Positions 1 to 14,334 of a DNA stretch of 64,000 nucleotides are shown piece after piece. The translations under genes were made by a program, and so were the position numbers. The notes beneath the pieces were generated by a model. It had not been told where the DNA came from. It made no database searches and was given only the letters and a program-made list of their open reading frames with translations. Within the stretch, counting starts at the first letter, position 1; the number at the start of each line of letters is the position of its first letter. Source of the DNA: Methylobacter sp. Its GTDB lineage: Bacteria; Pseudomonadota; Gammaproteobacteria; Methylococcales; Methylomonadaceae. The DNA lies in the NCBI GenBank assembly GCA_028716975.1, contig JAQUOU010000006.1, forward strand, positions 1-64,000, written 5' to 3'.

Positions 1-113
1 CATCTCCGACGCTCCGGTTGCTGTCGCCGATCCAAATGTGCTGATCAAATAATCCGTGTATAACTCAAGTTCTGTTTTTTTCATCCTGACAGAATACAAT
101 AGGTGGAGGGCCG

Positions 114-1295
114 ATGCGTAACATCAGTTATTATGTGGGCGGCAAGGAGAAGCAAAAGAAAATCGGACGCTACGGTAAAGGCAAGATGACTCTGAAAGCG
201 ATCCGGGATAAGTACACCGAGTTATCAAAAGAATATCAATCAGGAATTGACGTCAAGGCGCAAGAAACAGAACAGGCGGCTGCAGCGGAACGGGAACGGC
301 AGGCGCAGGCCGCTATTGAGCGCAAAGCCAAACTGCAAGGCAGCTTCCGGCAACTTATCGATTTATACCTGGAATACGCTAAAACGAATTTAAGCAATCA
401 TTACTATCAAAGCGTCAACCGGGCGTTTTTATTCAACCTGAAGGACTTCGACACGAACCTAAAAGTCAGTGAGATTGCGAAAGGCGATATCAATTCTATT
501 CTGAATCCTATTATTAATCGCGGCTCTCTGGTTATGGCGAATCGAATGCGAAGCTATTTATTGGCCGCGTTTAATTGGGGCATTGAGTTTGACGACCCGG
601 ATAACCCTGCAAAAACGGTGCAGTTTTTTATTGAAAGTAATCCGGTAGCCAAGATTAAAAAAGCACTTAAAAAAGAAAACCCGGTTGACAGGTTCCTGGA
701 TGAAACGGAAGTCTATACCTTATGGCAAGGGCTTAACCAAAGCTCTATGTCAGTGCATCGGGCAAATGTGCTTAAGCTGATGCTGGCGACCGGGGCGCGT
801 CTGGAAGCCCTATCAGGCTTGCAGTGGCACGAAATAGACTGGAACGAGCGACTGATTACCATACCGCCGAAACGCAGTAAAAACGGCCAATATTGGGTAA
901 TTCCGCTTAATGACATTGCGCATGAAATATTGCTCAGCAATCCGCGCCTGGACGATGTGTTTTTATTCCCGGCTGGCAATGGTATAGAGCCATTAAGGAC
1001 AGATAGTTTTTCTCAAGCGACTACCCGCCTATGCTTAAGCATCGGTATGAAACACTTTACCCCGCGCGACCTTCGGATCACCTTTAAAACCCTGGGCGGG
1101 AAGGCTGGCCTTGATAAGGACATCCGCGACCGGCTTCAGAATCACGCCTTAACGGATGTTTCAGCGAAACATTACGACCGGTACGACTATTTATTAGAAA
1201 AGCGGCGGGCTATGAAAATATGGAACACCTACTTGCAGAGGATTATCGATAACTCCGGGACAGCGCAAGTTATCCCATTCAAGAAAAATGCCTAA
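114..1295 (+). CDS. Tyrosine recombinase (phage/ICE-type integrase)
   Basis: Site-specific integrase of the lambda-integrase superfamily, which cuts and rejoins DNA through a catalytic tyrosine. Visible parts: a partial arm-binding (DUF4102-like) segment at residues 1-45, a core-binding helical part at about 75-190, and a C-terminal catalytic domain with Arg229 in ATGARLEAL, a Lys near 254-256, Arg321 in DLR, His344 in QNHAL and probable nucleophile Tyr354. The box II His (HxxR) appears as Arg318. ATG114 follows a purine-rich AGGTGGAGG. An in-frame TGA at 87-89 blocks extension, so the protein lacks roughly the first 35 residues of typical relatives. It is probably the integrase of the element occupying the left of the window. 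Family sure; activity not. Confidence 0.9.
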   Translation: MRNISYYVGGKEKQKKIGRYGKGKMTLKAIRDKYTELSKEYQSGIDVKAQETEQAAAAERERQAQAAIERKAKLQGSFRQLIDLYLEYAKTNLSNHYYQSVNRAFLFNLKDFDTNLKVSEIAKGDINSILNPIINRGSLVMANRMRSYLLAAFNWGIEFDDPDNPAKTVQFFIESNPVAKIKKALKKENPVDRFLDETEVYTLWQGLNQSSMSVHRANVLKLMLATGARLEALSGLQWHEIDWNERLITIPPKRSKNGQYWVIPLNDIAHEILLSNPRLDDVFLFPAGNGIEPLRTDSFSQATTRLCLSIGMKHFTPRDLRITFKTLGGKAGLDKDIRDRLQNHALTDVSAKHYDRYDYLLEKRRAMKIWNTYLQRIIDNSGTAQVIPFKKNA

Positions 1296-1395
1296 ACAAT
1301 CTAAAGTAGCATTGGATAGATTGAAATCAGGCCGCGCTGACAGTCGGCAGGAACAAAACCTGGATAAGATCCGCAGACATTGCCGCCGATGCTGA
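1288..1395 (+). CDS. Possible 35-aa ORF overlapping the integrase end
   Basis: An ATG inside the integrase stop region opens a 35-codon basic ORF (begins MPKQSKVALDRL, ends CRRC). The overlapping start suggests possible translational coupling, but I recognise no family and the length allows chance. It could be the 5' remnant of a longer accessory gene. Confidence 0.2.
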   Translation: MPKQSKVALDRLKSGRADSRQEQNLDKIRRHCRRC

Positions 1396-1635
1396 AAATA
1401 AATTCAAAATACACGGCAAACACCAGATATAGCGGTTGCTAAGCAGTCTAAACACCATTGCTTGTGTTTCAAATTGTAAGCTTTTGATACTAAAGCCAAA
1501 GCTGAATTACAGGCGTTTTAAGGCGTGATAATAGAGTAAGGAAAGGTAAACTTAGGTTACAAACAAAACGTTGCTCCACGGTACTGTAATTGCCGCTTAT
1601 GTGCAAAGCCAGTTTTATTTATTCAAAACTATGCT
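1396..1635. other. Non-coding stretch after the integrase
   Basis: I see no convincing ORF, RNA or promoter here. Together with the palindrome and hairpin that follow, it separates the integrase from alpA by about 620 bp, unlike the tight packing of the genes downstream. Confidence 0.5.
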
Positions 1636-1658
1636 AATATTAAACCGTGTTTAATATT
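1636..1658. repeat. Perfect 10-bp palindrome with 3-nt spacer
   Basis: AATATTAAAC and GTTTAATATT flank CGT. The AT-rich dyad has no T-tract, so it looks more like a protein-binding site or part of an origin/excision region than a terminator. It lies between the integrase and alpA, where AlpA-type regulators or excision factors often act; that assignment is inference. Confidence 0.6.
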
Positions 1659-1664
1659 TCAGAC

Positions 1665-1706
1665 ACAAAAAAGCCCGCCAAGACGCAAGTCAAGGCAGGC
1701 TTATTT
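1665..1706 (-). terminator. Hairpin resembling an intrinsic terminator
   Basis: AAGCCCGCC (1671-1679) pairs with GGCAGGCTT (1694-1702) with one C/A mismatch. Read leftward, the stem is followed by six T residues, the classic intrinsic pattern; read rightward the tail is weaker (TTATTT). No leftward gene lies to its right, so it may shield the integrase from antisense transcription or act in both directions. Confidence 0.5.
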
Positions 1707-1893
1707 AACAGGTTTTCAACGACCAATTTTACCCGCACTGACAGCGGATTTACTGCAATATTCGTCTGACGCCAATCAAACGAATGGGTAACAATGTATA
1801 ACAAAAGTTAATATTTTGCAATACGGCTTCGTGCTTATTTGCACAAACTCACACTATTGTTTGTTATATTTTTACCGCTTTATTCTGCCCAAG

Positions 1894-1909
1894 TGCCTAT
1901 TTATAGGCA
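1894..1909 (+). promoter_or_regulatory. Palindrome just upstream of the alpA start
   Basis: TGCCTAT-TT-ATAGGCA is a perfect dyad ending 7 nt before ATG1917. The only Shine-Dalgarno-like bases (AGG, 1905-1907) lie inside its right arm. It may be a repressor operator or an RNA hairpin masking the ribosome site; the sequence alone does not decide. Confidence 0.5.
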
Positions 1910-1916
1910 TTACCTA

Positions 1917-2132
1917 ATGAATAAAGTAAATTCAAGCGCACCAACATCTCAAAGCCAAATCCTGAGAATTGCCGCAGTCCTTGCCTTAACAGGACTATCC
2001 CGATCAACCATTTACGGCCTTATCCGCGCAGGCGATTTTCCCAGGCAGCTCAAGTTAGGCCCACGATCTTCGGGCTGGTATTTGCGCGAAATTCAAAACT
2101 GGCTATCCGAAAAAGCAAATAGCCGCGCATAA
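1917..2132 (+). CDS. AlpA-family helix-turn-helix regulator
   Basis: A 71-aa DNA-binding protein of the AlpA/excisionase-like (MerR-type HTH) family, which in prophages and integrative islands controls integrase/excision genes. Seen: ILRIAAVLALTGLSRSTIYGLIRAGDFPRQLKLGPRSSGWYLREIQNWL, the usual AlpA pattern of HTH, basic wing and Trp-rich end, with no other domain. I chose ATG1917 over an upstream in-frame ATG at 1839, because the extra 26 residues are hydrophobic and foreign to the family. There is no good Shine-Dalgarno outside the adjacent palindrome. It lies between integrase and primase, as is common in such elements. Confidence 0.85.
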   Translation: MNKVNSSAPTSQSQILRIAAVLALTGLSRSTIYGLIRAGDFPRQLKLGPRSSGWYLREIQNWLSEKANSRA

Positions 2133-2233
2133 AAACGCCCCGAAACCATACTTAATTATGGCCGGGGTTCCTGTTTTACCTTAACTTCAATACGCGAAGT
2201 TATTGTAACAGAATTACCGGCAAAGGATTTGCC

Positions 2234-3085
2234 ATGAAAAGTACTATAGAAAGCTTCACTACCGCCCTGCGGGATGCTGGCATTACCACGCCTGTTGCGA
2301 TAACCGGGGATGCGGGTTTGCACCGATTCCATATTGAAGGCGACAAAACCGGCACATTGAACGGCTGGTACGTGCTCCATCTGGACGGCAGGCCCGCTGG
2401 CGCGTTTGGCCATTGGAAAACCGGCCAGACTCACATCTGGAAGGCAAACAACCAGTACACGCCAATGACCGCAGCCGAGAAATCCGCTTTCAAGGCGCAG
2501 CGACGAAAAATAGAGGCCGAGCGGCAACGGAATCAGCAAAGCCGCCATAGTAAGGCCGCTGATAAGGCAATCTGGATTTGGCGGCAATCTACAACCGCGC
2601 CTTTTTTGCATCCCTACCTAATTAAAAAGCGCGTCTTGGCGCATAACGCGCGACTATACAAAGGCGCACTGGTTGTCCCGCTTTACGACAATCAGCTCCA
2701 ATTGGTAAACCTTCAATTTATATCGGCCAATGGCGAAAAGCGTTTTTTATCTGGCGGCAGAAAGTCTGGATGCTTTTTTGTCCTTGGGGATCTGAATGCC
2801 GATGACCACCAGCAAATATTGATAGTTGAAGGCTATGCAACTGGCGCGACGCTTCACGAATTAACCGGCCATGCAACCGTTGTCGCCTTCGATGCCGGTA
2901 ATTTAAAGCCAGTGGCTGAGGTCGTTAGGAATATTGCGCCAAATGCGGAAATTATCATTTGCGGCGATAACGATGCCAGCGGCGTAGGGCAGGCCAAGGC
3001 ACGGCAAGCGGCATTGGCGGCGAAGTGCAAGTATATCGTACCGCCGACTGTTGGTGATTTTAACGATCACTACGCTGGAGTCTGA
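2234..3085 (+). CDS. Toprim-domain primase-like protein
   Basis: A 283-aa protein resembling the Toprim part of primases on mobile elements (TraC/P4-alpha-like). The N-terminal 120 residues contain a conserved-looking GWYVLHLDGRPAGAFGHW segment. The C-terminal Toprim fold shows the acidic motif ILIVEGYATG (Glu near residue 200) and the DxD-type motif ICGDNDASGVGQAKA (near 240-250). No helicase domain is present here; the next gene supplies the ATPase. ATG2234 has AAAGGA 7 nt upstream. The 3' end overlaps the next ORF by up to 35 nt, indicating one operon. Inference: primes or assists replication of the integrated element. I do not see the zinc-finger region of full primases. Confidence 0.75.
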   Translation: MKSTIESFTTALRDAGITTPVAITGDAGLHRFHIEGDKTGTLNGWYVLHLDGRPAGAFGHWKTGQTHIWKANNQYTPMTAAEKSAFKAQRRKIEAERQRNQQSRHSKAADKAIWIWRQSTTAPFLHPYLIKKRVLAHNARLYKGALVVPLYDNQLQLVNLQFISANGEKRFLSGGRKSGCFFVLGDLNADDHQQILIVEGYATGATLHELTGHATVVAFDAGNLKPVAEVVRNIAPNAEIIICGDNDASGVGQAKARQAALAAKCKYIVPPTVGDFNDHYAGV

Positions 3086-4967
3086 TATTGTTGAATTATT
3101 AATAGCTAACGACAGCAGCGCGGAATTTTTTTCTGCTGACAATTTCTTGTTAAACAACGTTGCCAACGTTGCCAATGTTGCCACATTGAATTTATCACAG
3201 GCGATTAATGCAAAAGCTGAGACTATGGAGTCCGCTAAGTCGCTGGTTGATGGCGTGCTCGATACCTGTAAAGATAATCCCGGCCAGTTATTCAGTCCTG
3301 AATTTACCGATGCGCTGAAAAATATCCGCCAAGACCCGATGCTATGGGCGGAGTATCGCGTCAAGCTCAAGAAAGCTAAGCCGTCTGGCGTATTGTTGGC
3401 CGATATTGACGAGGCGACCGCGCCGCCAAGCGAGGGCGGAGGCGACGGCTCGATAGCGGCGGAATTGATCGCGCTGGTATCAGGTCAAGGCGAATTGTTT
3501 TTCGACGTCAAGGCGGACAAAAGTTTTATGTCGGTTGATGTGGGAGGCGTTAATCATACTTACGCCATAGGCGGCAAGGCGTTTATTGAATGGCTAAGTT
3601 TTAGCTATTATCAGGCGACGCGAAGCGAGGAAGGCCCCGGCAAATCAGCGAGTGAAACGGCCATCAAGCAGGCTGGCTTTGCTTTGGCGGGCATTGCCAA
3701 GCACGATGGACATCAGCAGCGGGTTTATATCCGGGTGGCTGACCATAATGGCGGGCATTATGTTTTTATTGGCGATGAGCAGCGCCGCGTCATCGAAATA
3801 TTGCCTACGGGCTGGCGGATTATCAGCCAGTCGCCGGTTAAATTCTGGCAACCCTCTTCCATGCAATCTTTGCCCCTACCGCAACCCGGCGGCAATTTGT
3901 CGGATTTGTGGAAGTTTGTCAATATACCGGAAAAAGAACGGCCGCTCATTTTGGCATGGCTACTGGAGGCCATGCGATCAGAAACGCCCAAACCGATAGC
4001 GGCAATATCCGGGCCTCAGGGCACAGCCAAATCCGCCACGCATGACAAGTTGCGGCAGTTGATTGATAACAACACCGCCAATCTTCGACCGATGCCTAAG
4101 TCCGTCGAGGATATTTTTGTTAGTGCCGGTTGCAACTGGTTTTCGAGTTTTGAGAATATCTCACACCTGACCCCGCTTATGCAGGACGCGCTTTGTACTT
4201 TAGCCACTGGCGGCGGCTTTGCGACCCGCACCTTTTACACCAATAGCGAGGAGACCATTATCGATGTGCGCAACCCTGTCATCATAAATTCCATCCCTAA
4301 TGTTGTGACCGCTCAGGATTTAACTGACCGGGCGATCAGTATTGAATTAGCGGCTATTGAAACCTATAAGGAGGAGGCGGAAATGAAGACGGAATGGGAA
4401 CAAGCCAAGCATGCTATTTTTGGCGGCTTGCTGGATTTGTTTGTCAAAACGCTGGCGCAACTGCCCAGGGTAAGGATCATTAACCCCCCGCGCATGGCGG
4501 ATTTTACCCGGCTAGGCGAGGCTATGATGCAAGCGCAAGGCGAGAGGGCAGGTACATTTGATACGCTTTATAAAGAGAACCGGGCGGAAAGCGTAAGCCG
4601 GGCGCTGGAATCATCCCCTGTCGCGGTTGCTGTCTGTGAAATGGTGGAAAAGCACAAAGCCATATCAGAGACAGTTTTTCTTGGCACGGTGAAGGATTTG
4701 CTGGACAGACTATCCAAGGAACACCGCCATGATTCGGAAGGCTGGCCACGGTCGGCTAAAGGTTTGTCGGGCGCATTGAAGCGGCAGATACCCGCGCTGG
4801 CGACACTGGGGATCATTGTTGAACTGGGGCGTAAAGTTGAACGCATTAATGAAAGCCGGGGAATCCCCATTACAATTAAGAAAAGTGGCAACGTTGTCAA
4901 CGTTGGCAACATGGAATCAAAGAAAAGTGCCGCAGAAAATAATTTTAATGCCGTGGAGGACTTCTAA
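3051..4967 (+). CDS. P-loop ATPase, replication-helicase-like
   Basis: A large ATPase of the kind found next to Toprim primases on integrated elements. Seen: Walker A GPQGTAKS in the middle of the protein, a probable Walker B/sensor stretch ending WFSSFENIS, and the conserved block DALCTLATGGGFATRTFYTNSEE followed by RNPVIINSIP and DLTDRAISIEL, which resemble sensor and arginine-finger elements of these ATPases. The N-terminal 100 residues look variable. The start is uncertain: the longest frame uses TTG3051 inside the previous gene, and a GGAG at 3077-3080 suggests a later, possibly non-ATG start. Short repeats NVANVANVAT (near residues 36-45) and NVVNVGNM (near the C-terminus) are discussed separately. 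Exact helicase family not assigned. Confidence 0.7.
   Translation: MVILTITTLESDIVELLIANDSSAEFFSADNFLLNNVANVANVATLNLSQAINAKAETMESAKSLVDGVLDTCKDNPGQLFSPEFTDALKNIRQDPMLWAEYRVKLKKAKPSGVLLADIDEATAPPSEGGGDGSIAAELIALVSGQGELFFDVKADKSFMSVDVGGVNHTYAIGGKAFIEWLSFSYYQATRSEEGPGKSASETAIKQAGFALAGIAKHDGHQQRVYIRVADHNGGHYVFIGDEQRRVIEILPTGWRIISQSPVKFWQPSSMQSLPLPQPGGNLSDLWKFVNIPEKERPLILAWLLEAMRSETPKPIAAISGPQGTAKSATHDKLRQLIDNNTANLRPMPKSVEDIFVSAGCNWFSSFENISHLTPLMQDALCTLATGGGFATRTFYTNSEETIIDVRNPVIINSIPNVVTAQDLTDRAISIELAAIETYKEEAEMKTEWEQAKHAIFGGLLDLFVKTLAQLPRVRIINPPRMADFTRLGEAMMQAQGERAGTFDTLYKENRAESVSRALESSPVAVAVCEMVEKHKAISETVFLGTVKDLLDRLSKEHRHDSEGWPRSAKGLSGALKRQIPALATLGIIVELGRKVERINESRGIPITIKKSGNVVNVGNMESKKSAAENNFNAVEDF
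3156..3182 (+). repeat. Three 9-bp tandem repeats (AACGTTGCC)
   Basis: AACGTTGCC, AACGTTGCC and AATGTTGCC follow each other without gaps in the 5' part of the ATPase gene and encode NVANVANVA. A related block lies at the 3' end of the same gene (4887-4910). They may be coding low-complexity repeats or iteron-like binding sites. Confidence 0.8.
4887..4910 (+). repeat. Second block of the CAACGTTG repeat
   Basis: GGCAACGTTG-TCAACGTTGG-CAAC closely resembles the reverse complement of the 3156-3182 array. The 8-bp core CAACGTTG is itself palindromic and occurs twice here. It lies in the last 27 codons of the ATPase gene. Confidence 0.75.
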
Positions 4968-4968
4968 A

Positions 4969-5871
4969 GTGACTGCGATTCGTCAAAACAGAAACACCCG
5001 TCCGCGCGGCTTCATGACCTGGAACCCGCGCCCTGATACGCAGGAATTGCTGTCACAGATAAAAGGCATTTTGGACGAATACAGCAACTACCTGCCGATG
5101 ACGATCCGGCAAATTTTCTATCGGCTCGTGGGCGCTCATGGCTATGCGAAGGATGAAAAAGCCTACAGCCGCTTATGTGAATGCTTAAACAAGGCCCGGC
5201 GCGCGGGCGTGATTCCGTTTGCGCATATCCGGGACGATGGCTTTTCAGAATTGCAGGAAAATTATTTCAGCTCGCCCCAGTCGTTTATCAAAACAGTGCG
5301 TCATGCCGCTGAAAATTACCAGCGCGACCCGCAAACCGTCCAGCCTGTGCGTTTATTCGTCTGGTGCGAAGCAGCCGGCATGGCGAACCAACTAGCGCAA
5401 GTATCACAGCCTTACGGCGTTCCGGTACTGAGTTCAGGCGGCTTTGACAGCGTTACCGTTAAATACGACCTGGCGCGTAAATTCAGCGAATACGAGGCCG
5501 TTCAGGTTTTCCATGTGGGCGATCATGATCCTTCCGGCATTCATATATTCAGCTCGCTGGAGGAGGATGTCAAAGCCTTCATGGTGGAGAGCGAAACCGA
5601 TATTGAATTTACCCGCCTAGCCGTAACACCGGCGCATATTGAACAATACAGCCTGCCGACCGCACCCGCCAAGGCGACCGATAACCGCCGCTTTATAGGG
5701 CAGACCGTTCAGTGTGAAGCCTTGCCGCCTGACATTCTATGCGGCATTTTGGACGAAGCATTAAAAGAGTGTATCGATCAGGCCGCGAGAAATGAGCTGA
5801 TCGTTAAAGAAACCGCAGAGCATCAACGGCTGATGCAGTGGAGGACCAGCAGTTTTCAGGCGCAGTCGTGA
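4969..5871 (+). CDS. Topoisomerase VI A / Spo11-like Toprim protein
   Basis: A 300-aa protein with the two landmarks of the TopoVIA/Spo11 superfamily. The first is a 5Y-CAP-like winged-helix segment TIRQIFYRLV (residues 45-54, Tyr51 the candidate nucleophile). The second is a Toprim domain with Glu134 in VWCEAAG and Asp185/Asp187 in VGDHDPSG. GTG4969 is preceded by GGAGGA at 8 nt and lies 1 nt after the ATPase stop. An in-frame ATG upstream (4816) would overlap that gene and add an unrelated N-terminus. No GHKL-type B subunit lies nearby, so it may act without one, as proposed for Mini-A-type proteins of mobile elements. Cleavage activity is inferred, not shown. Confidence 0.65.
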   Translation: MTAIRQNRNTRPRGFMTWNPRPDTQELLSQIKGILDEYSNYLPMTIRQIFYRLVGAHGYAKDEKAYSRLCECLNKARRAGVIPFAHIRDDGFSELQENYFSSPQSFIKTVRHAAENYQRDPQTVQPVRLFVWCEAAGMANQLAQVSQPYGVPVLSSGGFDSVTVKYDLARKFSEYEAVQVFHVGDHDPSGIHIFSSLEEDVKAFMVESETDIEFTRLAVTPAHIEQYSLPTAPAKATDNRRFIGQTVQCEALPPDILCGILDEALKECIDQAARNELIVKETAEHQRLMQWRTSSFQAQS

Positions 5872-6380
5872 TGGAGCTATTCAGCGAAATTAACCAAGCC
5901 GGTTTGAAACTTTCGGTGCATGGCGATCAAGTCAGAGTTGAAAATGCCGAATGCCTGACCGACCGGCTCAGAAACCTGATCCGCGCCAACAAGCCCGCGC
6001 TTATCTGGCGGCTCTCAAAAGCAACGGCTCCCAACGGCCTTAGCGCCAATGATGAAGCCGTCATTCTGAATTGGCTGGCTCACATTAGCGAAACCGATCC
6101 TGAAACCATTGCCGAAACCTTAGACTGTTGCCACGCTGATGCTGAAACCCTGGCGTACTTTCTTGGCCGGGCTAAGGAAACGCCCGCACCCGTCATCACT
6201 TGCGGCGATTGTCAGCACTTCGAATGCTTTAACGCACATGGCCGGGGAGCGGGTGCTTGTAATGCCGATATTAAAGCTTCTGGCGTTTGTTTGTGGAGCG
6301 ATACCCCTCACCTATGCGATCAATTCATGCAAAAGACTATTTATAGCCCTACAAGCTTCTGCAACCAATTAATACAATAG
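5871..6380 (+). CDS. TubC_N-domain protein with Cys-rich C-terminus
   Basis: A 169-aa protein. Residues 1-50 match the TubC N-terminal docking-domain pattern (MELFSEINQAGLKLSVHGD, then a hydrophobic/basic helix RLRNLIRANKPALIWRL). That fold mediates subunit docking in NRPS/PKS lines but also occurs on mobile-element proteins. The C-terminal third carries CGDCQHF, then spaced Cys and His residues (CFNAH, GACN, SGVCLW, HLCDQF), consistent with a zinc-binding knuckle. ATG5871 overlaps the upstream TGA as TGATG, implying translational coupling to the TopoVIA-like protein. An alternative upstream ATG at 5838 lies inside that gene. Function unknown; docking to a replication partner is an inference. 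Confidence 0.65.
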   Translation: MELFSEINQAGLKLSVHGDQVRVENAECLTDRLRNLIRANKPALIWRLSKATAPNGLSANDEAVILNWLAHISETDPETIAETLDCCHADAETLAYFLGRAKETPAPVITCGDCQHFECFNAHGRGAGACNADIKASGVCLWSDTPHLCDQFMQKTIYSPTSFCNQLIQ

Positions 6381-6388
6381 GCGCAGTA

Positions 6389-7039
6389 ATGACGAAAAAG
6401 AAACCAAAAGCCGAAACCCCCAACAAAGCCGCTGTCGAAGTAAAGCAGCCCAAGGACGAACCCTCGGATGCGGCATTAGCCCAGACAGTGCTGAGTCCTT
6501 CCGTGCAAGCCGCCTCAACTATTCAGTTATGGCAGTGTGAACTCCTCGACTTTAAGTCTTTACTCGATGAATTAAAGCAGCAGGTTGAAATGGTGAACAG
6601 CGGTGATATGAAGCGCCCGGAAACTATGTTATTAACGCAAGCGCATACGCTAGACTCGTTGTTTAACAAACTGGCGCAAAAGGCTTATAAACAAGAGTAC
6701 ATATCGCAGCTCGAGACATTTTTACGTCTGGCATTGAAGGCGCAAAGCCAATGCCGAAGCACCTTGGAGACTTTAGCGACGCTCAAAAACCCGGTAATAT
6801 TTGCACAACAGGCCAATATTGCCCACGGCTCGCAGCAAATCAATAATGGCATACCTTCCCGCGCGGAAGAACAAGCAATTGCGCCAAACAAACTATTAAG
6901 GGAGAGCCCCCATGCGACACTGGACACCGGCAGAACGATTGAAACAGGCGCAATTGATTCGCCAATGGAAACCGTGGCAGCAGTCCACCGGCCCGAAAAC
7001 ATCTGTAAGCAAGGCCAAAGTATCACGCAACCCCTATAA
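6389..7039 (+). CDS. Conserved-looking protein of unknown function
   Basis: A 216-aa hydrophilic protein starting 8 nt after the previous stop. The N-terminal 35 residues are Lys/Pro/Glu-rich and probably disordered. Residues 45-135 are helical (LLDFKSLLDELKQQVEMV, TLDSLFNKLAQKAYKQEY, LRLALKAQSQCRSTLETLA) and resemble coiled or helical-bundle proteins found beside integrated-element replication genes. The C-terminal 60 residues look unstructured and overlap the next gene by 128 nt, so part of this tail may be constrained by the other frame. No signal peptide, membrane segment or catalytic motif is visible. I do not recognise a function. Confidence 0.55.
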   Translation: MTKKKPKAETPNKAAVEVKQPKDEPSDAALAQTVLSPSVQAASTIQLWQCELLDFKSLLDELKQQVEMVNSGDMKRPETMLLTQAHTLDSLFNKLAQKAYKQEYISQLETFLRLALKAQSQCRSTLETLATLKNPVIFAQQANIAHGSQQINNGIPSRAEEQAIAPNKLLRESPHATLDTGRTIETGAIDSPMETVAAVHRPENICKQGQSITQPL

Positions 7040-7118
7040 AGGTGGCGTTAGGCCGATGTTGCGTAAACTTGCATCCTTACTGCGAGAGCAGCAGGTATGC
7101 CTGAAGCGAATAAAATAA
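6912..7118 (+). CDS. Small WTP...QSTGPKT-motif protein
   Basis: A 68-aa basic protein beginning MRHWTPAERLKQAQLIRQW and continuing KPWQQSTGPKT..KAKVSRNPYKGG. This family pattern (helix rich in Arg/Gln, then STGPxT...GK...N..KGG) is common among short proteins of mobile elements, but no biochemical role is known to me. It overlaps the end of the 6389 gene in another frame. ATG6912 follows AAGGGAGAG (6898-6906) at about 5 nt, an excellent ribosome site that supports a real start. The next gene carries a related STGPxT motif. Confidence 0.65.
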   Translation: MRHWTPAERLKQAQLIRQWKPWQQSTGPKTSVSKAKVSRNPYKGGVRPMLRKLASLLREQQVCLKRIK

Positions 7119-7158
7119 TGCTGATGAGATTCAACCCAACTATTGAAGGTATTAACCC

Positions 7159-8022
7159 ATGACCACATCCATTCTCCAATTAACAGCGAACCAAAATAAC
7201 GCCTTAAAATCCATCGGCCCGGTAACGGCAGAAGGCAAACAGATTGTTGCTAATAATGCGGTTAAACACGGCCTATTTTCAAAGCATCTGGTTCTTAGCC
7301 ATGAAAATCCGGAAGACTATCAGCGTTTACTGGAAGGACTGCAAACCGAACTTAAACCAGTAGGAACGCTGGAATATACGCTGATTGAACGCATCGCCGT
7401 AATCTTATGGCGGCAAAGCCGTTTAGTAAGATCAGAAACCGCGCATATTGAACTCAGCTACAAACCCGGCAGTATTGCCTCAGCGGTCACTAGCGAAATG
7501 GGGTTATATGGCTCCGGCAAGGAAATCTCAGAAGATGACCTAACCGAGTTTGATCAGGCACAGCACCAATGGTGTCAATCTGTTATTAAAGAATTTGACC
7601 AGATTGCTGAAGATAAGCTGACAAATATAGAGGCATTGAAAACAGAAGCCCCATTAATGTACAAACAGTTGGCGGAAGATGCCATACAGGATCAGGAATC
7701 CATAGCAGACTATCTTAAAAGCTGGGATCAACCGGCGGAATTTTTCTATGATCTGATTAAATACTGCCAAGAACAAATCAAAAAAACAGAACAACGCCCT
7801 TTAATTTTAGAAGTAGCTAATATGATTAGAAACAAACGCGCGGTTCTGCAGCAGGAACAGTTACGCGATGCGCTGGCTAAATACCAGGTCATGCTGGATA
7901 ACGAGTTGTACAAAGCCATTAAAGCCCTCAGGGAAACTCAAATCTGGCGGCTGGATTCTTTACCAAGCACTCCTGATGAAAATGGCTTTGTTTTGGAAAA
8001 AGGCAGTGTTTCTGGAAAGTAA
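7159..8022 (+). CDS. Unknown protein with NALKSIGPVT...NAVKHGL motif
   Basis: A 287-aa, mostly alpha-helical protein. Near the N-terminus it has NQNNALKSIGPVTAEGKQI followed by NNAVKHGLFSKHL, a motif of many uncharacterised bacterial proteins (N..KSTGPxT.eGK....NA.KHGL). After it comes LKPVGTLEYTLIERIAVILWRQSRLVRSE, also typical of that family. No transmembrane segment and no recognised enzyme motif. It is the last gene of the replication-like run; a 126-nt gap separates it from the restriction gene. Family membership is fairly clear, function unknown. The N-terminal motif might bind nucleic acid, a guess from its basic character. Confidence 0.65.
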   Translation: MTTSILQLTANQNNALKSIGPVTAEGKQIVANNAVKHGLFSKHLVLSHENPEDYQRLLEGLQTELKPVGTLEYTLIERIAVILWRQSRLVRSETAHIELSYKPGSIASAVTSEMGLYGSGKEISEDDLTEFDQAQHQWCQSVIKEFDQIAEDKLTNIEALKTEAPLMYKQLAEDAIQDQESIADYLKSWDQPAEFFYDLIKYCQEQIKKTEQRPLILEVANMIRNKRAVLQQEQLRDALAKYQVMLDNELYKAIKALRETQIWRLDSLPSTPDENGFVLEKGSVSGK

Positions 8023-8148
8023 GCTGATACATTTTCAGTTTACTTTTGGTACTGTCAATATTTAATGCACAGACTAAGATACATTACGAAATCCGCTGCG
8101 CTACGTCATTTATCCAACAAAGCGCGATCTTAAAGCCTATTGATCTTA

Positions 8149-10827
8149 ATGACAGTTAAAAACCAAATGAAAAAATCCGATCCCTTTAAGATACTTCCAC
8201 CCAATGAACGATGGGCTCCGACGCAAAGCCAAATGGACGCTTTTCAGAATGCCTATGAAAAGTTATTGCCGCCCTTGGTTTATAAGATCAGATTGGCCGT
8301 TGCAAAGTGGAGAGAAGATAATTACCAAGGCGCTTCAGAAACCTCAAAATCATTGCTGAACTTCTGGTTTAATCAGGAACATCTACTGGGGCAAACCCAA
8401 TTCAGTTTTTTCTTTTCCCAACGCGAAGCCATTGAGTCCATTATCTATCTCTATGAAGTAGCCAACGCAAAAGATAAATACGAACTCATGCGCTTCGATT
8501 CTTCGCAACGTGTCAGTACAGGTATGTTTGATGAAACCTGGACACGTTATGTAGTAAAAATGGCGACCGGCGCAGGTAAAACCAAGGTAATGGGCTTGAC
8601 TTTGGTGTGGTCATACTTTCATAAGCTCTATGAGGCGGAAAGCCAACTATCAAAGGATTTTTTGGTCATTGCTCCGAACATCATTGTGCTAAACCGTTTA
8701 CGCAAGGATTTTGACGGCCTGAAAATGTTTTTTGCTGAACCTTTTATTCCCGATAACGGCTTTGATGATAAAGACTGGAAAAATAATTTTCAATTAATCT
8801 TGCATATTCAGGACGAACTTAAACCCATTACTGAATCAGGCAATATTTTCTTGACTAATATTCACCGGGTATTTTTCAATGAAGAAGCTGAACCATCTTT
8901 TGAAACCACTTTCCTGGGTGTAAAGCCTAAACCTGATGCCGACACTTCAAAAGGCTTGGACTTGGGTAAAGTCATGCGTAGCGACAAGATTAAAGATTTG
9001 GTGGTGTTGAATGACGAAGCCCATCACATACATGACAATTCTTTGGCTTGGTTTAAAAGCATTGAGGACATCAGCAATAAACTGAAACTAAAAAATGGCA
9101 ATGGTATAAGCCTTCAGGCAGACTTTTCAGCCACGCCAAAACACAGTGACGGTAGAATTTTTGTCCAGACCATTTGCGATTATCCGTTGGTGGAAGCCAT
9201 CAATCAAAATGTCGTAAAGTCGCCGGTATTGCCTGATGAAGCCTCCAGACAAAAAATTCAGGAAAAAGACAGCAGCGACTTTGTAGAACGTTACCGGGAT
9301 TACATTGATTTGGGTTATCTGGAATGGGAGCAACAGTACGAGGAGTTGAAAAACCATAAAACCCCCATCCTGTTCATTATGACCATGAGCACCCATGAGG
9401 CAGATCAGGCAGCGGCATTTTTGGAGGCTAATTACCCGAAAATGAAAAATGCGGTGTTGACTATTCACACCAACAAATCGGGTGAAATAAAAGAAACGGC
9501 CTCCAGCAAAAAGGACAAGGACAAACTGGAAGCGCTAAGAAAAGCAGCGGACGACATTGATAAAGACCATTCCCATTACAAGGCGGTTGTTTCAGTGTTA
9601 ATGCTTAGGGAAGGCTGGGATGTACGGAATGTAACTACCATTGTTGGGCTACGCACATTCGGAGCGGAATCTAAAATTTTACCGGAACAAACCATCGGCA
9701 GGGGTTTACGGAAAATGTTTTCACTGGACACGCCGGAAAAACTGGTTGTAGTTGGCACCCCTGCGTTTTTGGAATTTGTGGAAAGCCTTAAAACAGAAGG
9801 CGTGGAATTTCAATATAGTCCAATGGGCAAAGGCTCAAAAGGCAAATCGCCGGTTATTGTGGAAGTGGACAAAGACAATCCAGACAAAGATTTGGATGCG
9901 TTGGATATTCCCATTCCGCAAATGAGTCCCAGATTTTACCGGGAGTTTAAGAATTTGCAGTTGATAGATATAAGCAAATTCAAAAACGAAAAGCTAACAT
10001 TGAAAAAATTCAGCAGCGATGAATTGAAAGAAATCATCTTCAATGACATTGACGGTGATTTCTCTCATAAAACGGTTTTCAAAGATATCCTTCCCGATTA
10101 TCGCAATGTCATTGGTTTTTTTACTTCCGCTATTTTAAAAGACAGCCGTTTGGTCAGTGGTTTTAATATTCTCTATCCCAAAGTGGAAAGCTTTATTAAA
10201 TACCAATTATTTACCCAGGAAGTGGAATTAAGCGATGCTCAAGCCATGCGCAACCTTTCCGAATTGCACCCAAAAGAGGTTTTGAAAACGGCGTTTAAAA
10301 AAGCGATTGACGAACTGACCGTTACCGACAAGGGCGGCGCAGAGGTTAAAAATTATATTTCCTTAAAACTTACCAAACCGAGAATTGCCGAAAACCAGCC
10401 TTTCCTTATTCCAAAGAAATCAATCTTCAACAAAATTATTGGCGACAATCCTTTTGAATTGGAATTGGCTTCATACCTGGAAAGCCGTTTTAATGAAGTC
10501 ATTTCTTATGCCAAAAATAGCAAGGGTGAAGGCGGAGTCAATTTTAAAATGGAGTATCAAGCCGAAAATGGCAACATACGGGATTATTATCCGGATTTTT
10601 TTATAAAAACCAATGCCAATACATTTTATATACTCGAAACCAAAGGCCGCGAGGATTTAGACGACATACGGAAAATCAAACGCCTGGCGACTTGGTGCAA
10701 AGATATCAACGCCATACAAAACCAGTACAGCTATACCCCTGTGTATGTGAAACAGGAAAAATGGGATGAGGTGAAAAAGGATATAAAATCTTTCGGAGAA
10801 CTGTGTCTGTTATTTGAATTGCAATAA
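8149..10827 (+). CDS. Type III-like restriction subunit (Res), DEAD-box ATPase/nuclease
   Basis: A translocase/endonuclease of restriction-modification systems. In order: an N-terminal region, helicase motif I ATGAGKT (residues about 139-145), motif II DEAH within LVVLNDEAHH (about 289-292), motif III DFSATPKHSDG, helicase domain 2 with VSVLMLREGWDVRNV and motif VI TIGRGLRKMF, and a C-terminal PD-(D/E)xK nuclease near residues 810-835 (YYPDFFI ... YILETKG). All key residues are present. The longest frame begins TTG8140; ATG8149 and ATG8167 are alternatives, none with a clear ribosome site. Res precedes Mod here, the reverse of the common mod-res order, with a Fic gene between them. Confidence 0.88.
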   Translation: MTVKNQMKKSDPFKILPPNERWAPTQSQMDAFQNAYEKLLPPLVYKIRLAVAKWREDNYQGASETSKSLLNFWFNQEHLLGQTQFSFFFSQREAIESIIYLYEVANAKDKYELMRFDSSQRVSTGMFDETWTRYVVKMATGAGKTKVMGLTLVWSYFHKLYEAESQLSKDFLVIAPNIIVLNRLRKDFDGLKMFFAEPFIPDNGFDDKDWKNNFQLILHIQDELKPITESGNIFLTNIHRVFFNEEAEPSFETTFLGVKPKPDADTSKGLDLGKVMRSDKIKDLVVLNDEAHHIHDNSLAWFKSIEDISNKLKLKNGNGISLQADFSATPKHSDGRIFVQTICDYPLVEAINQNVVKSPVLPDEASRQKIQEKDSSDFVERYRDYIDLGYLEWEQQYEELKNHKTPILFIMTMSTHEADQAAAFLEANYPKMKNAVLTIHTNKSGEIKETASSKKDKDKLEALRKAADDIDKDHSHYKAVVSVLMLREGWDVRNVTTIVGLRTFGAESKILPEQTIGRGLRKMFSLDTPEKLVVVGTPAFLEFVESLKTEGVEFQYSPMGKGSKGKSPVIVEVDKDNPDKDLDALDIPIPQMSPRFYREFKNLQLIDISKFKNEKLTLKKFSSDELKEIIFNDIDGDFSHKTVFKDILPDYRNVIGFFTSAILKDSRLVSGFNILYPKVESFIKYQLFTQEVELSDAQAMRNLSELHPKEVLKTAFKKAIDELTVTDKGGAEVKNYISLKLTKPRIAENQPFLIPKKSIFNKIIGDNPFELELASYLESRFNEVISYAKNSKGEGGVNFKMEYQAENGNIRDYYPDFFIKTNANTFYILETKGREDLDDIRKIKRLATWCKDINAIQNQYSYTPVYVKQEKWDEVKKDIKSFGELCLLFELQ

Positions 10828-10867
10828 TGCAAGGCCTGTTCATCAATATCAATAATTATGGCTGGAA

Positions 10868-10943
10868 CTGCGAATATAAAACTTCATATTTGCAGAAAAC
10901 ACCATAACTGCTATTATGAATTTCTATATTTGCAGTACAAATA
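10868..10943 (+). promoter_or_regulatory. Operator-like palindromes upstream of fic
   Basis: Two dyads share the half-site TATTTGC. CTGCGAATAT (10868-10877) faces ATATTTGCAG (10886-10895) across 8 nt with one mismatch. TATTTG (10927-10932) faces CAAATA (10938-10943) across 5 nt, and ATATTTGCAG is repeated exactly at 10926-10935. The array ends 13 nt before the fic ATG. It looks like a repressor-binding region, perhaps for the winged-helix C-terminus of the Fic protein itself. Confidence 0.55.
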
Positions 10944-10956
10944 AGTAACCAGGGCA

Positions 10957-12090
10957 ATGAATATAAGCAGTTTTAAGTCGGGGAAATCCGTACAGCGCTA
11001 TCAGTACAAAAGCTTTGAGCCAAATTTGGTGGATGTGGCTTGGCAAATTGACAATGCCGAACTGATAATGCTTTTGAGCCAAGCCAATATTAAACTGGGC
11101 GAACTGAATGCCTTCTCGCAACTGATACCCGATGTGGATTTTTTTATCAAAATGCACGTATTCAAAGAAGGTACAAAAAGCAGCCGCATAGAAGGCACTC
11201 AAACCAATATTGACGAAGCCATACAAAAAGAAGAATACATACAGCCTGAAAAAAAAGACGATTGGCAAGAGGTTCAAAATTATGTGCAGGCCATGAACCA
11301 AGCTATAGAGAGTTTGGAAAAACTGCCCTTGAGCAATCGCTTGCTAAAACAAACCCACCAAACCCTTTTGCAAGGGGTCAGAGGCACTCATAAACTGCCC
11401 GGTGAATTTCGGCAAAGTCAAAACTGGATTGGCGGCAGCAGTTTGGCCGATGCGGTATTTATTCCGCCGCACCAGGATTCGGTAAACGGTTTAATGGCTG
11501 ATTTGGAAAAGTTTCTACACAACCACAATAACCCTGTCCCGCCGCTTGTAAAAATTGGCATTGCTCATTACCAGTTCGAAACCATTCACCCTTTTTTGGA
11601 TGGCAATGGCAGGATTGGGCGTGTGCTGATTACCTTATTTCTGGTAAGCAACCAATTGTTATACAAACCGACCTTGTACCTGTCTGATTTTTTTGAACAG
11701 CATAAAGCGTTGTATTACGACAACCTGACCCGGGTGCGGACGCATAATGATTTAACCCGCTGGCTTAAATTTTTTTTGGAAGGCGTCCGCAGCACGTCTG
11801 AAAATTCCATACAAACATTTAAAGGCATTATCGCACTGAGAAGCGAGATGGAACACAAAATCATGTCGCTGGGCAAAAAACAGGCCCTGGCGAAATCATT
11901 TTTACAGTACCTGTACAGCAAACCGATAACCGATGCCGGCGATGTTGCCGAAGCTCTTGCTGTAAACGTTTCCACGGCGCTACGACTGATTGACGATTTT
12001 ATCAAGTTAAACATATTGATAGAAATCACCGGATTCAAGCGCAATAGAATTTTTGCTTTTGATGGCTACATTCAACTATTTAGATCATGA
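10957..12090 (+). CDS. Fic-domain protein (AMPylator type, class II)
   Basis: Fic enzymes usually transfer AMP from ATP to hydroxyl groups of target proteins. Seen in 377 aa: a Fic_N-type N-terminus; the inhibitory motif [ST]xxxE[GN] as SSRIEG at residues 75-80, so self-inhibition is expected; the complete Fic motif HPFLDGNGRIGR at 211-222, with catalytic His211; and a C-terminal winged-helix-like segment (about 310-370, containing DAGDVAEALAVNVSTALRLIDDF). ATG10957 has only a weak AGGG upstream. The stop overlaps the Mod start by 4 nt (ATGA), so the two are probably co-translated. Its place inside an RM operon suggests a regulatory or back-up toxic role; the target is unknown. Confidence 0.88.
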   Translation: MNISSFKSGKSVQRYQYKSFEPNLVDVAWQIDNAELIMLLSQANIKLGELNAFSQLIPDVDFFIKMHVFKEGTKSSRIEGTQTNIDEAIQKEEYIQPEKKDDWQEVQNYVQAMNQAIESLEKLPLSNRLLKQTHQTLLQGVRGTHKLPGEFRQSQNWIGGSSLADAVFIPPHQDSVNGLMADLEKFLHNHNNPVPPLVKIGIAHYQFETIHPFLDGNGRIGRVLITLFLVSNQLLYKPTLYLSDFFEQHKALYYDNLTRVRTHNDLTRWLKFFLEGVRSTSENSIQTFKGIIALRSEMEHKIMSLGKKQALAKSFLQYLYSKPITDAGDVAEALAVNVSTALRLIDDFIKLNILIEITGFKRNRIFAFDGYIQLFRS

Positions 12091-14153
12091 CTGAACAAGA
12101 CCGCGACCGCATCATAGAACTCATCAAGGCGGGCGAAAAACTGCCCAAGGAATACATCTACAAACTATTTGCCGATGAAGAAGACGTGTTTCTGTTCTGG
12201 AATGGTCGCAAGGAAGAGGTAACCAATATTGCCCTGCCTTTCCACAGCATTGAGCATATCGACGTGCCGCGCCGGGAAGCCGATAAAAAAGGCGATAATT
12301 TTGATCTATTTGCAACCGACCTGAGAGGGCGGCAACAAAAAGGCTGGACTAACAAACTGATTTGGGGCGACAACAAGCTGATTCTTTCCTCGTTGGCAAA
12401 CGGCCCGATGCGGGAAGATATAGAACAGGAAGGCGGCTTGAAGCTCATTTATATTGATCCCCCTTTTGCCGTCGGCGCAGACTTTGGGTTTAACATAGAA
12501 ATTGGCGGCGAAACAGCCGAAAAGAAGCAAAGCATCATCGAAGAAATTGCCTACCGCGATACTTGGGGTAAAGGTATCTCTTCTTACCTTACCATGATGT
12601 ACGAACGTTTGAAACTCATGCACAATTTATTGGCGGAAGATGGGAGTATCTATGTGCACTGTGATTGGAGGATGAGTCATTATTTAAAACTGGTTTGTGA
12701 TGATGTATTCGGTGCAGAGAATTTCATAAACGAAATCTCATGGCGATATAAAAGATGGCCGTCTAAAAGCAACAACTTTCAGAAAATGCACGACATTATT
12801 CTTTTCTATGGTAAGGGAGACAAAAGAATATTTAATGTAATAATGCAAGAATTGACTGAAGGAACTAATAAACGGTGGCAAGGCCAGAAAAGCAAAGTAG
12901 AGTTTGTTAAAGGTGTACGTCAAGTTACTCAGATGACTGATGAAAAATCCGAAGGGACGCCACAGGATGATGTTTGGGATATTCCCGTCGTAAACTCCCA
13001 AGCAAAAGAGCGGTTCGACTACCCTACTCAAAAACCAGAATCGTTATTAGAACGCATCATCAAGGCCAGCAGCAACGAAGGCGATTTAATAGCTGATTTC
13101 TTTTGTGGCAGTGGCACTACAGCAGCGGTCGCAGAAAAACTTGGCCGTAAATGGATAACAACCGACTTGGGCAGGTTTTCAATACACACCGCTCGTAAAC
13201 GCTTGATTGGCGTACAGAGGGAATTACAGGCTTCGGGCAAAGATTTCAGGGCGTTTGAGATTCTCAATTTGGGCAAATACGAACGTCAGTTTTTTATGGA
13301 TGATCTGACCAACGGCAAACGCAAAGCTAAGGAAGATGTATATGTGGATTTAATCCTGGAAGCCTACAAAGCCAAACGCCTTGAAGGGCATAATACCTTG
13401 CACGGCAGCAAGGCAGGCCGTTTTATCAATGTCGGCCCCCTGGATGTGCCGGTAACGCAAAGCCGCCTGATGGATATTTTTGAAGAATGCCGCCAAAAAC
13501 TCTATACCCAAGTCGAGGTCTTGGGCTTTGAATTTGAAATGGGCTTAACGCCGCAATTCATCCAGGAACTCAAGGAAAAAGGCGTTTCCGTAACGCTTAA
13601 ATACATACCCAAAGAGGTATTCGACAAAAGAGCCGTAGAAAAAGGCCAAGCAAAATTCTTTGATGTTGCTTATTTAAATACCAAGGAAAAAATAAAAGAA
13701 AAAACCATAACCATCGAACTGACCGACTTTGTTACGCACTACACCCAGGACGATATTGAAGAACTGCAACAATCCATGCGGGCAGGAAGCAAAGTCGTCA
13801 TTGAAGACGGGCAAATCATTAAAATCGAAAAAGACAAAAACGGCATTATTAACCGGACTGTTCTGACTCAAAACTGGCACGACTGGATAGACTACTGGGC
13901 GATTGATTTCAACTACGAAGACAAACAAGAAATCATCAAAGTAAAAAACGACCACGGAGAAACAGAGGAAAAATGGACAGGCAATTACCTGTTTGAAAAC
14001 GAGTGGCAGAGTTTCCGCACCAAGAAAAATCCCAAGTTTGAATTTACCAGCATAGCTCACGAATACCAGCAACCAGGTAAATACAAAGTAATGGTCAAAG
14101 TGGTAGACATTTTGGGAATTGACACGAGCAAGATCATTGAAGTGAAAATATGA
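12087..14153 (+). CDS. Type III-like DNA methyltransferase (Mod)
   Basis: A DNA adenine (or cytosine-N4) methyltransferase and specificity subunit, 688 aa. Motif IV DPPF (residues 124-127, in IYIDPPFAVG) precedes the SAM-binding motif FCGSGT (339-344), the beta-class order of Type III Mod proteins. The region between them is the expected target-recognition domain and is lower in GC than its flanks. The C-terminal 300 residues are an extension ending in a PKD-like strand pattern (YQQPGKYKVMVKVVDILGIDT). It overlaps fic by 4 nt. It should protect host DNA and guide Res. Recognition sequence cannot be read from the protein. Confidence 0.88.
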   Translation: MTEQDRDRIIELIKAGEKLPKEYIYKLFADEEDVFLFWNGRKEEVTNIALPFHSIEHIDVPRREADKKGDNFDLFATDLRGRQQKGWTNKLIWGDNKLILSSLANGPMREDIEQEGGLKLIYIDPPFAVGADFGFNIEIGGETAEKKQSIIEEIAYRDTWGKGISSYLTMMYERLKLMHNLLAEDGSIYVHCDWRMSHYLKLVCDDVFGAENFINEISWRYKRWPSKSNNFQKMHDIILFYGKGDKRIFNVIMQELTEGTNKRWQGQKSKVEFVKGVRQVTQMTDEKSEGTPQDDVWDIPVVNSQAKERFDYPTQKPESLLERIIKASSNEGDLIADFFCGSGTTAAVAEKLGRKWITTDLGRFSIHTARKRLIGVQRELQASGKDFRAFEILNLGKYERQFFMDDLTNGKRKAKEDVYVDLILEAYKAKRLEGHNTLHGSKAGRFINVGPLDVPVTQSRLMDIFEECRQKLYTQVEVLGFEFEMGLTPQFIQELKEKGVSVTLKYIPKEVFDKRAVEKGQAKFFDVAYLNTKEKIKEKTITIELTDFVTHYTQDDIEELQQSMRAGSKVVIEDGQIIKIEKDKNGIINRTVLTQNWHDWIDYWAIDFNYEDKQEIIKVKNDHGETEEKWTGNYLFENEWQSFRTKKNPKFEFTSIAHEYQQPGKYKVMVKVVDILGIDTSKIIEVKI

Positions 14154-14334
14154 CGACCCCTTCCACTTGAAATATTCTGCTGGAGAATTGCTTGTTGGCT
14201 AAATAGGATGCAATGACAGCGCCCCTAATAGCTCAATTTTTAGAGTAAGACATGGCGGATTATTTAATTCCAGCGTGATGCCAAACCCAGACCGTTACCC
14301 AGACCAAAAGTGGAGTTCTTGAATTTCAGGCAAT

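What the first reader, a model, noticed from the sequence alone, without database searches (positions are those of the whole stretch)
8149..14153. Restriction-modification operon in the order Res-Fic-Mod, with a complete Fic enzyme between the subunits
Seen: a Type III-like Res with intact helicase and nuclease motifs, a Fic protein with an intact HPFLDGNGRIGR and an inhibitory SSRIEG, and a Mod with DPPF before FCGSGT. Fic and Mod overlap by 4 nt. Known: Type III loci are usually mod-res, and Fic proteins act mostly as AMPylators in toxin-antitoxin or effector settings. Inference: Fic may modify Res, Mod or a host factor, controlling when restriction is switched on after entry into a new host, or act as a back-up abortive toxin if Mod fails. 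A restriction gene upstream of its methyltransferase makes such timing control attractive.
Basis: partly seen in the sequence, partly recalled or inferred. Interest (0 to 1): 0.65.

Follow-up and report, generated by a model that had tools for sequence, protein, structure and literature searches.

The report
Fic toxin-like gene in swappable restriction slot
A methane-oxidising bacterium carries a DNA restriction-modification operon with an enzyme gene of the Fic family (protein-modifying, toxin-like) lodged between the cutter and the methylase; related operons in many phyla carry other toxin-like or defence-associated genes, or nothing, at the same spot, so the Fic is most likely an exchangeable back-up defence cassette and not the operon's timer.

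Summary
In detail: Res (8167-10827), Fic (10957-12090) and Mod (12087-14153) are intact, on one strand, and Fic and Mod overlap by ATGA. Res-first is normal for this family: about 40 relatives at >=60% identity in several phyla are Res-then-Mod. The gap between them is a swappable slot. It is empty in 8 loci and elsewhere holds AlbA_2/ATPase, PIN toxin, PDDEXK, YhcG, ORF6N or Fic genes, always on the operon strand, with 27 changes on the Res tree. In all 8 PIN loci, Res carries a 40-46 aa in-frame tail that matches the toxin-binding end of a free-standing antitoxin (53% identity), so there the restriction enzyme itself probably doubles as antitoxin. The Fic trio moves as a unit: the same block lies in a different island of Ca. 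Methylobacter favarea. A Leptospiraceae locus keeps the same dual operator and a Fic stub in the slot. Fic relatives joined type I and type III operons repeatedly. Fic is SoFic-like, autoinhibited and under strong purifying selection. Best reading: an autoregulated abortive-defence cassette in a guard slot. AMPylation of Res or Mod as a timing switch is not supported. Target and trigger are untested.

The parts
8167..10827 (+). Res: helicase with C-terminal PD-(D/E)XK nuclease, type III-like restriction subunit (886 aa; longer start at 8149 possible)
   Evidence: Pfam ResIII 7e-15; motifs intact; in-frame stop upstream in sister copy L021
10868..10895 (.). operator-like palindrome 1, CTGCGAATATAAAACTTCATATTTGCAG
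   Evidence: 22/28 palindromic; same site in L021 and in the Leptospiraceae locus L043, found nowhere else in the loci then held at <=3 mismatches
10889..10917 (+). promoter-like TTTGCA-17-TATTAT overlapping both palindromes
   Evidence: consensus scan, 9 of 12 with TG extension; the scan as a whole is not above shuffles
10908..10935 (.). operator-like palindrome 2, CTGCTATTATGAATTTCTATATTTGCAG, 40 bp from palindrome 1
   Evidence: same spacing kept in L043
10957..12090 (+). Fic: SoFic-like class II Fic, 377 aa, with SSRIEG inhibitory motif, HPFLDGNGRIGR active site and a C-terminal domain like SoFic's winged helix
   Evidence: PADLOC SoFic 3e-120; AlphaFold pLDDT 92; Foldseek to SoFic 3zcn E 1e-17, 355 columns; dN/dS 0.027
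12087..14153 (+). Mod: beta-class N6/N4 methyltransferase, 688 aa, type III-like
   Evidence: Pfam N6_N4_Mtase 3e-51; PADLOC MTase_III 1e-128
12731..13016 (+). target-recognition region of Mod, replaced relative to the sister locus
   Evidence: no blastn alignment to L021 in this stretch, while the two sides are 94% and 89% identical
8158..14182 (+). Res-Fic-Mod block shared with Ca. Methylobacter favarea (L021) without any flanking homology
   Evidence: blastn

Best explanation
[quoted passage not shown] It is an autoinhibited SoFic-type AMP-transferase that probably acts as a growth-stopping or abortive-infection enzyme, held low by its inhibitory helix and by autorepression: its C-terminal domain binds the two palindromes over the promoter before fic. 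Fic and Mod are then read from that internal promoter. The trio thus pairs DNA restriction with a protein-targeting back-up that fires when infection or anti-restriction disturbs the cell. Shown: anatomy, intact motifs, fold, purifying selection, slot exchange, co-movement, conserved operator-like sites, repeated recruitment of Fic into RM operons. Inferred: toxicity, autorepression, the trigger, and any physical tie to Res or Mod.
For: Slot contents change 27 times on the Res tree of 51 loci, and near-identical Res carry different tenants. Tenants are toxin- or defence-associated: PIN, AlbA_2, PDDEXK_3, YhcG, ORF6N; in the sister clade SIR2, XRE-peptidase, DUF4411 and KilA-N, several matching PADLOC defence-candidate models. 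All are co-directional. In 8 of 8 PIN loci Res ends in a 40-46 aa antitoxin-like tail, absent in the other loci, matching a free-standing antitoxin (53%, E 2e-14). Remnants of AlbA_2 and Fic genes in slots show loss of tenants without loss of Res and Mod. Fic tree: 7 changes between RM-linked and solitary, at least 5 forced by well-supported branches. Fic fold and motifs are SoFic-like. EcSofic is toxic in a catalytic-His-dependent way, and Sofic is reported to protect against phage (PMC12249575). CccR, a Fic of similar domain plan, binds palindromes in its own promoter, and CbFic2 binds DNA (PMC10628234).
Against: No toxicity, phage or DNA-binding data for this protein. No antitoxin tail on Res at the Fic locus, so the physical tie suggested for PIN is not shown for Fic. 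About 23 of the 38 close Fic relatives on the tree are solitary, so Fic does not need RM. The window's own palindromes do not beat shuffles on their own; support comes from conservation in L043.
Confidence: 0.6

Rival explanations
1. Sheltered hitchhiker: Fic is an autonomous SoFic-type defence or stability gene that merely profits from sitting between Res and Mod, where deletions are costly because Res without Mod would cut the chromosome. It has no functional link to RM.
For: Most close Fic relatives are solitary; the Fic here has its own operator-like and promoter-like region; Res and Mod persist in relatives without it.
Against: Repeated recruitment specifically into RM operons; Fic genes with no room for their own promoter, such as L139 with a 4-nt overlap with HsdS; the Res-antitoxin fusion suggests that at least one tenant is tied to Res.
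Confidence: 0.25
2. C-protein-like regulator: the C-terminal domain of Fic represses the internal promoter, so on entry into a new host Fic-Mod is transcribed strongly before Fic accumulates. This gives Mod a head start over Res; enzyme activity is secondary.
For: Two conserved palindromes 40 bp apart overlap a promoter-like site between Res and Fic-Mod; domain layout as in DNA-binding Fics (PMC10628234).
Against: Many other tenants (AlbA_2, PIN) start on the Res stop codon (ATGA) with no room for a promoter, and empty slots have 26 bp, so the family does not need such a circuit; the enzyme active site is strictly kept.
Confidence: 0.15
3. One reading: Fic AMPylates Res or Mod and so switches restriction on or off.
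For: Position in the operon; intact Fic active site.
Against: Same Res-Mod family without Fic; the same Fic family with unrelated type I and type III proteins or alone.
Confidence: 0.07

Closest known systems
SoFic / Sofic (class II Fic, single-gene phage defence; PADLOC SoFic)
   Same: Active-site and inhibitory motifs, Fic_N plus Fic domains, C-terminal domain, end-to-end fold
   Different: About 26% identity in the structural alignment to S. oneidensis SoFic; NCBIfam equivalog score 184, far below the cut-off of 550; embedded in an RM operon
Genes embedded in RM loci ('guilt by embedding', Payne et al. 2024 preprint cited in PMC11411939 and PMC12988326; TgvAB; DarTG2 in the RptR island PMC12255303)
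   Same: A defence-type gene between RM subunits on the same strand, with intact RM genes around it
   Different: Described cases that I read are type I RM or Hma clusters; here a Res-first type III-like family with one slot exchanged at high frequency, and Fic as a tenant
PrrC in EcoPrrI (RM guard; PMC12707154) and the immunity-suicide coupling hypothesis (PMC3506569)
   Same: A toxin-like gene inside an RM operon; hypothesis that RM proteins act as antitoxins
   Different: No trigger shown here; in the PIN sister cassettes the antitoxin part appears fused to Res, a physical form of the tie; Fic has no such partner
Type III RM (EcoP15I, EcoP1I)
   Same: Beta-class Mod matching EcoP15I Mod, helicase-nuclease Res
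   Different: Res precedes Mod; Res has no PDB sequence relative at E<=0.001

Membership tests
Type III restriction-modification | Mod is a beta-class adenine methyltransferase with the recognition region between DPPY-like and FxGxG motifs | tested here: met
   DPPF 12456 before FCGSGT 13101; PADLOC MTase_III 1e-128; EcoP15I Mod hit
Type III restriction-modification | Res with SF2 helicase and C-terminal PD-(D/E)XK nuclease | tested here: met
   ResIII domain and motifs
Type III restriction-modification | mod before res in the operon (usual, not biochemical) | tested here: not met
   Res-Mod in this clade, Mod-Res in most of the sister clade
Type III restriction-modification | cleavage 25-27 bp from head-to-head unmethylated sites by a Res-Mod complex | not testable with these tools
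   needs enzyme
SoFic class II Fic | HxFx(D/E)GNGRxxR active site | tested here: met
   HPFLDGNGRIGR, His211 invariant in 21 homologues
SoFic class II Fic | N-terminal inhibitory helix (S/T)xxxE(G/N) | tested here: met
   SSRIEG at residues 75-80; S75, E79 and G80 invariant
SoFic class II Fic | C-terminal domain as in SoFic (winged helix) | tested here: met
   model aligns over 355 columns with the 369-aa SoFic chain, TM 0.78
SoFic class II Fic | NCBIfam SoFic equivalog cut-off | tested here: not met
   184 bits against 550: a SoFic-like relative, not an equivalog
SoFic class II Fic | toxicity and phage protection | not testable with these tools
   needs experiment
RM-embedded defence gene | sits between RM core genes, same strand, core intact, dispensable in relatives | tested here: met
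PrrC-like RM guard | toxin kept latent by the RM complex and released by anti-restriction | not testable with these tools
   only suggestive: antitoxin-like tail on Res in PIN cassettes, none at the Fic locus
Type II C-protein circuit | DNA-binding protein in the RM operon acting on its own promoter | tested here: inconclusive
   conserved dual palindrome over a promoter-like site; no binding data

The most novel reading that the evidence does not exclude
The Res-Mod junction of this family is a plug-in guard socket: the RM proteins hold interchangeable toxins in check, in the PIN version through an antitoxin domain fused to the restriction enzyme itself, and Fic is one such toxin that is released when Res or Mod is inhibited or lost.
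Probability: 0.3. Interest if true: 0.8.

Novelty: new variant of a known kind. Interest (0 to 1): 0.58.

Why it matters
It turns 'defence genes tend to sit inside RM operons' into a natural experiment: the same Res-Mod pair with many alternative tenants, including an empty control and, in eight loci, a restriction enzyme that appears to carry an antitoxin. That makes the long-standing immunity-suicide coupling idea directly testable, and gives Fic enzymes a defined place in RM loci.

Tried and rejected
Island ends: no att-like repeat of the tRNA-Asn region was found in 1-14150, and the window starts at a contig end, so the wider island was not delimited. Simple shuffle tests did not make the window's palindromes significant; I rely on conservation in L043 instead. 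Pfam and NCBIfam do not recognise the Res tail; direct comparison with a free antitoxin does. The viral collection gave one Res-Mod locus, with an empty slot. An assembly-artefact reading does not fit, since the trio is present in a second genome.

Full report
Observation. The window holds three intact genes on the + strand: Res 8167-10827 (an in-frame stop in the sister copy argues against the 8149 start), Fic 10957-12090 and Mod 12087-14153, with an ATGA overlap between Fic and Mod. Res has no solved relative by sequence; Mod matches EcoP15I Mod; Fic matches SoFic structures. An AlphaFold model of Fic (pLDDT 92) matches SoFic over nearly its whole length, including the C-terminal domain.

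Is Res-first unusual? Not here. A scan of genome contigs with Res gave 50 loci in Bacteroidota, Gammaproteobacteria, Leptospirota, Chlorobiota, Campylobacterota and others. Wherever both genes are present they run Res then Mod on one strand. The sister clade at 47-55% identity is mostly Mod then Res. The family is rare (14 of 395 Bacteroidota genomes and 4 of 398 Pseudomonadota genomes have a match at 1e-60, sister clade included), yet often 80-88% identical between phyla, so it spreads horizontally.

The slot. Between Res and Mod lies a variable site. It is empty in 8 loci (26-35 bp). Otherwise it holds AlbA_2 plus HATPase (8, and one in the sister clade), PIN (8), PDDEXK_3/GxxExxY (5), YhcG (2), ORF6N (1), Fic (2), a RhuM-like fragment (1, by eye) or an IS200-type transposase (1). 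Five have gaps of 200-330 bp without a gene; one of these keeps the first 20 codons of an AlbA_2 gene. The sister clade has SIR2, XRE-peptidase, DUF4411 or KilA-N genes in the same place. All tenants lie on the operon strand. On the Res tree the tenant changes 27 times over 51 loci, and Res proteins that are nearly the same carry different tenants.

Res as antitoxin in the PIN loci. In all 8 PIN loci the Res frame runs on for 40-46 residues and its stop overlaps the PIN start; other loci have 0-9 extra residues (L068 has 23; the distant L128 has 19). The tail ends ...KGADVSNFGDPVEWQKKDRTERKIIGL. A free-standing relative of the PIN gene (L159, 40% identical) follows a 72-aa antitoxin-like gene whose C-terminal half is 53% identical to the tail, E 2e-14 for this single comparison. 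The N-terminal half of that protein is absent from Res. This is sequence evidence, not an assay. It is the strongest sign that tenants of this slot can be tied to the RM proteins.

The Fic cassette. The window and Ca. Methylobacter favarea share exactly 8158-14182 (94% and 89% nucleotide identity on the two sides of the Mod recognition region, which is replaced) and no flanks, so the trio has moved as a unit. dN/dS is 0.027 for Fic, 0.09 for Res and 0.17 for Mod. Ahead of Fic are two palindromes 40 bp apart over a promoter-like site. A Leptospiraceae MAG (L043) keeps both palindromes at the same spacing and the first 23 codons of a Fic (70% identical) between Res and a GxxExxY gene: a Fic cassette once sat in the same slot in another phylum. 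The motif was not found elsewhere in the loci held at that time.

Fic elsewhere. Relatives at 50-58% identity stand between HsdS and HsdR (L103, L142, L143), next to HsdS or HsdR in partial operons (L106, L109, L115, L139), directly before unrelated type III Mod-Res pairs (L105, L138, L141), or alone. The Hsd names rest on reading motifs and N-termini, not on a family search of each gene. On the Fic tree RM-linked and solitary states change 7 times, at least 5 of them forced by well-supported branches. Many solitary relatives have their own inverted repeats of about 33 bp upstream that shuffles rarely reach, which fits autoregulation as reported for CccR (PMC10628234).

Mechanism. Because the Res-Mod pair exists without Fic, and Fic without this pair, a dedicated timing switch by AMPylation of Res or Mod is unlikely. 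Fic is best read as a SoFic-like, autoinhibited, autoregulated enzyme that adds an abortive layer to restriction. Sofic of E. coli is toxic and is reported to protect against phage (PMC12249575). Whether the RM proteins hold this Fic in check is open: Res carries no extra tail at the Fic locus.

Novelty. Embedding of defence genes in RM loci is known (PMC11411939, PMC12255303, PMC12707154, PMC12988326), and the coupling idea dates from 2012 (PMC3506569). New here, as far as the held papers show, are a Res-first type III-like family with one highly exchanged slot, the Fic cassette with a conserved dual operator-like region in it, and an antitoxin-like tail on Res with the matching toxin in the slot. 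Most subscription papers and all preprints could not be searched.

Noticed in passing
L024, L026, L030, L038, L041, L042, L057, L061 (Res-PIN junctions): Res carries an in-frame 40-46 aa antitoxin-like tail whose stop overlaps the start of a PIN toxin gene: an apparent restriction enzyme-antitoxin fusion.
   Followed up: partly
window 12731-13016 against L021: The recognition region of Mod is replaced between two otherwise 89-94% identical operons, i.e. a probable switch of DNA specificity while Res and Fic stay.
   Followed up: partly
upstream of Fic in L104, L105, L106, L109, L116, L146, L148, L149, L152, L154: Inverted repeats of about 33 bp with lineage-specific sequence (e.g. TTTCTGACATAA-N9-TTATATCAGAAA) in front of solitary and RM-linked Fic genes.
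   Followed up: partly
L138, L141: SNF2 helicase, (AlbA_2), Fic, Mod, Res gene strings in relatives of the window's organism: a second type of Fic-type III RM locus.
   Followed up: no
L139:4532-5263: A second, different Fic gene follows the first one behind HsdM-HsdS-like genes.
   Followed up: no
L153:7473-10247: A Fic gene cut by an insertion of repeated transposase-like ORFs.
   Followed up: no
window 114-8022: Integrase, Toprim protein and several orphan ORFs upstream of the trio, at higher GC (48% against 41% for Res), not shared with the sister locus.
   Followed up: partly
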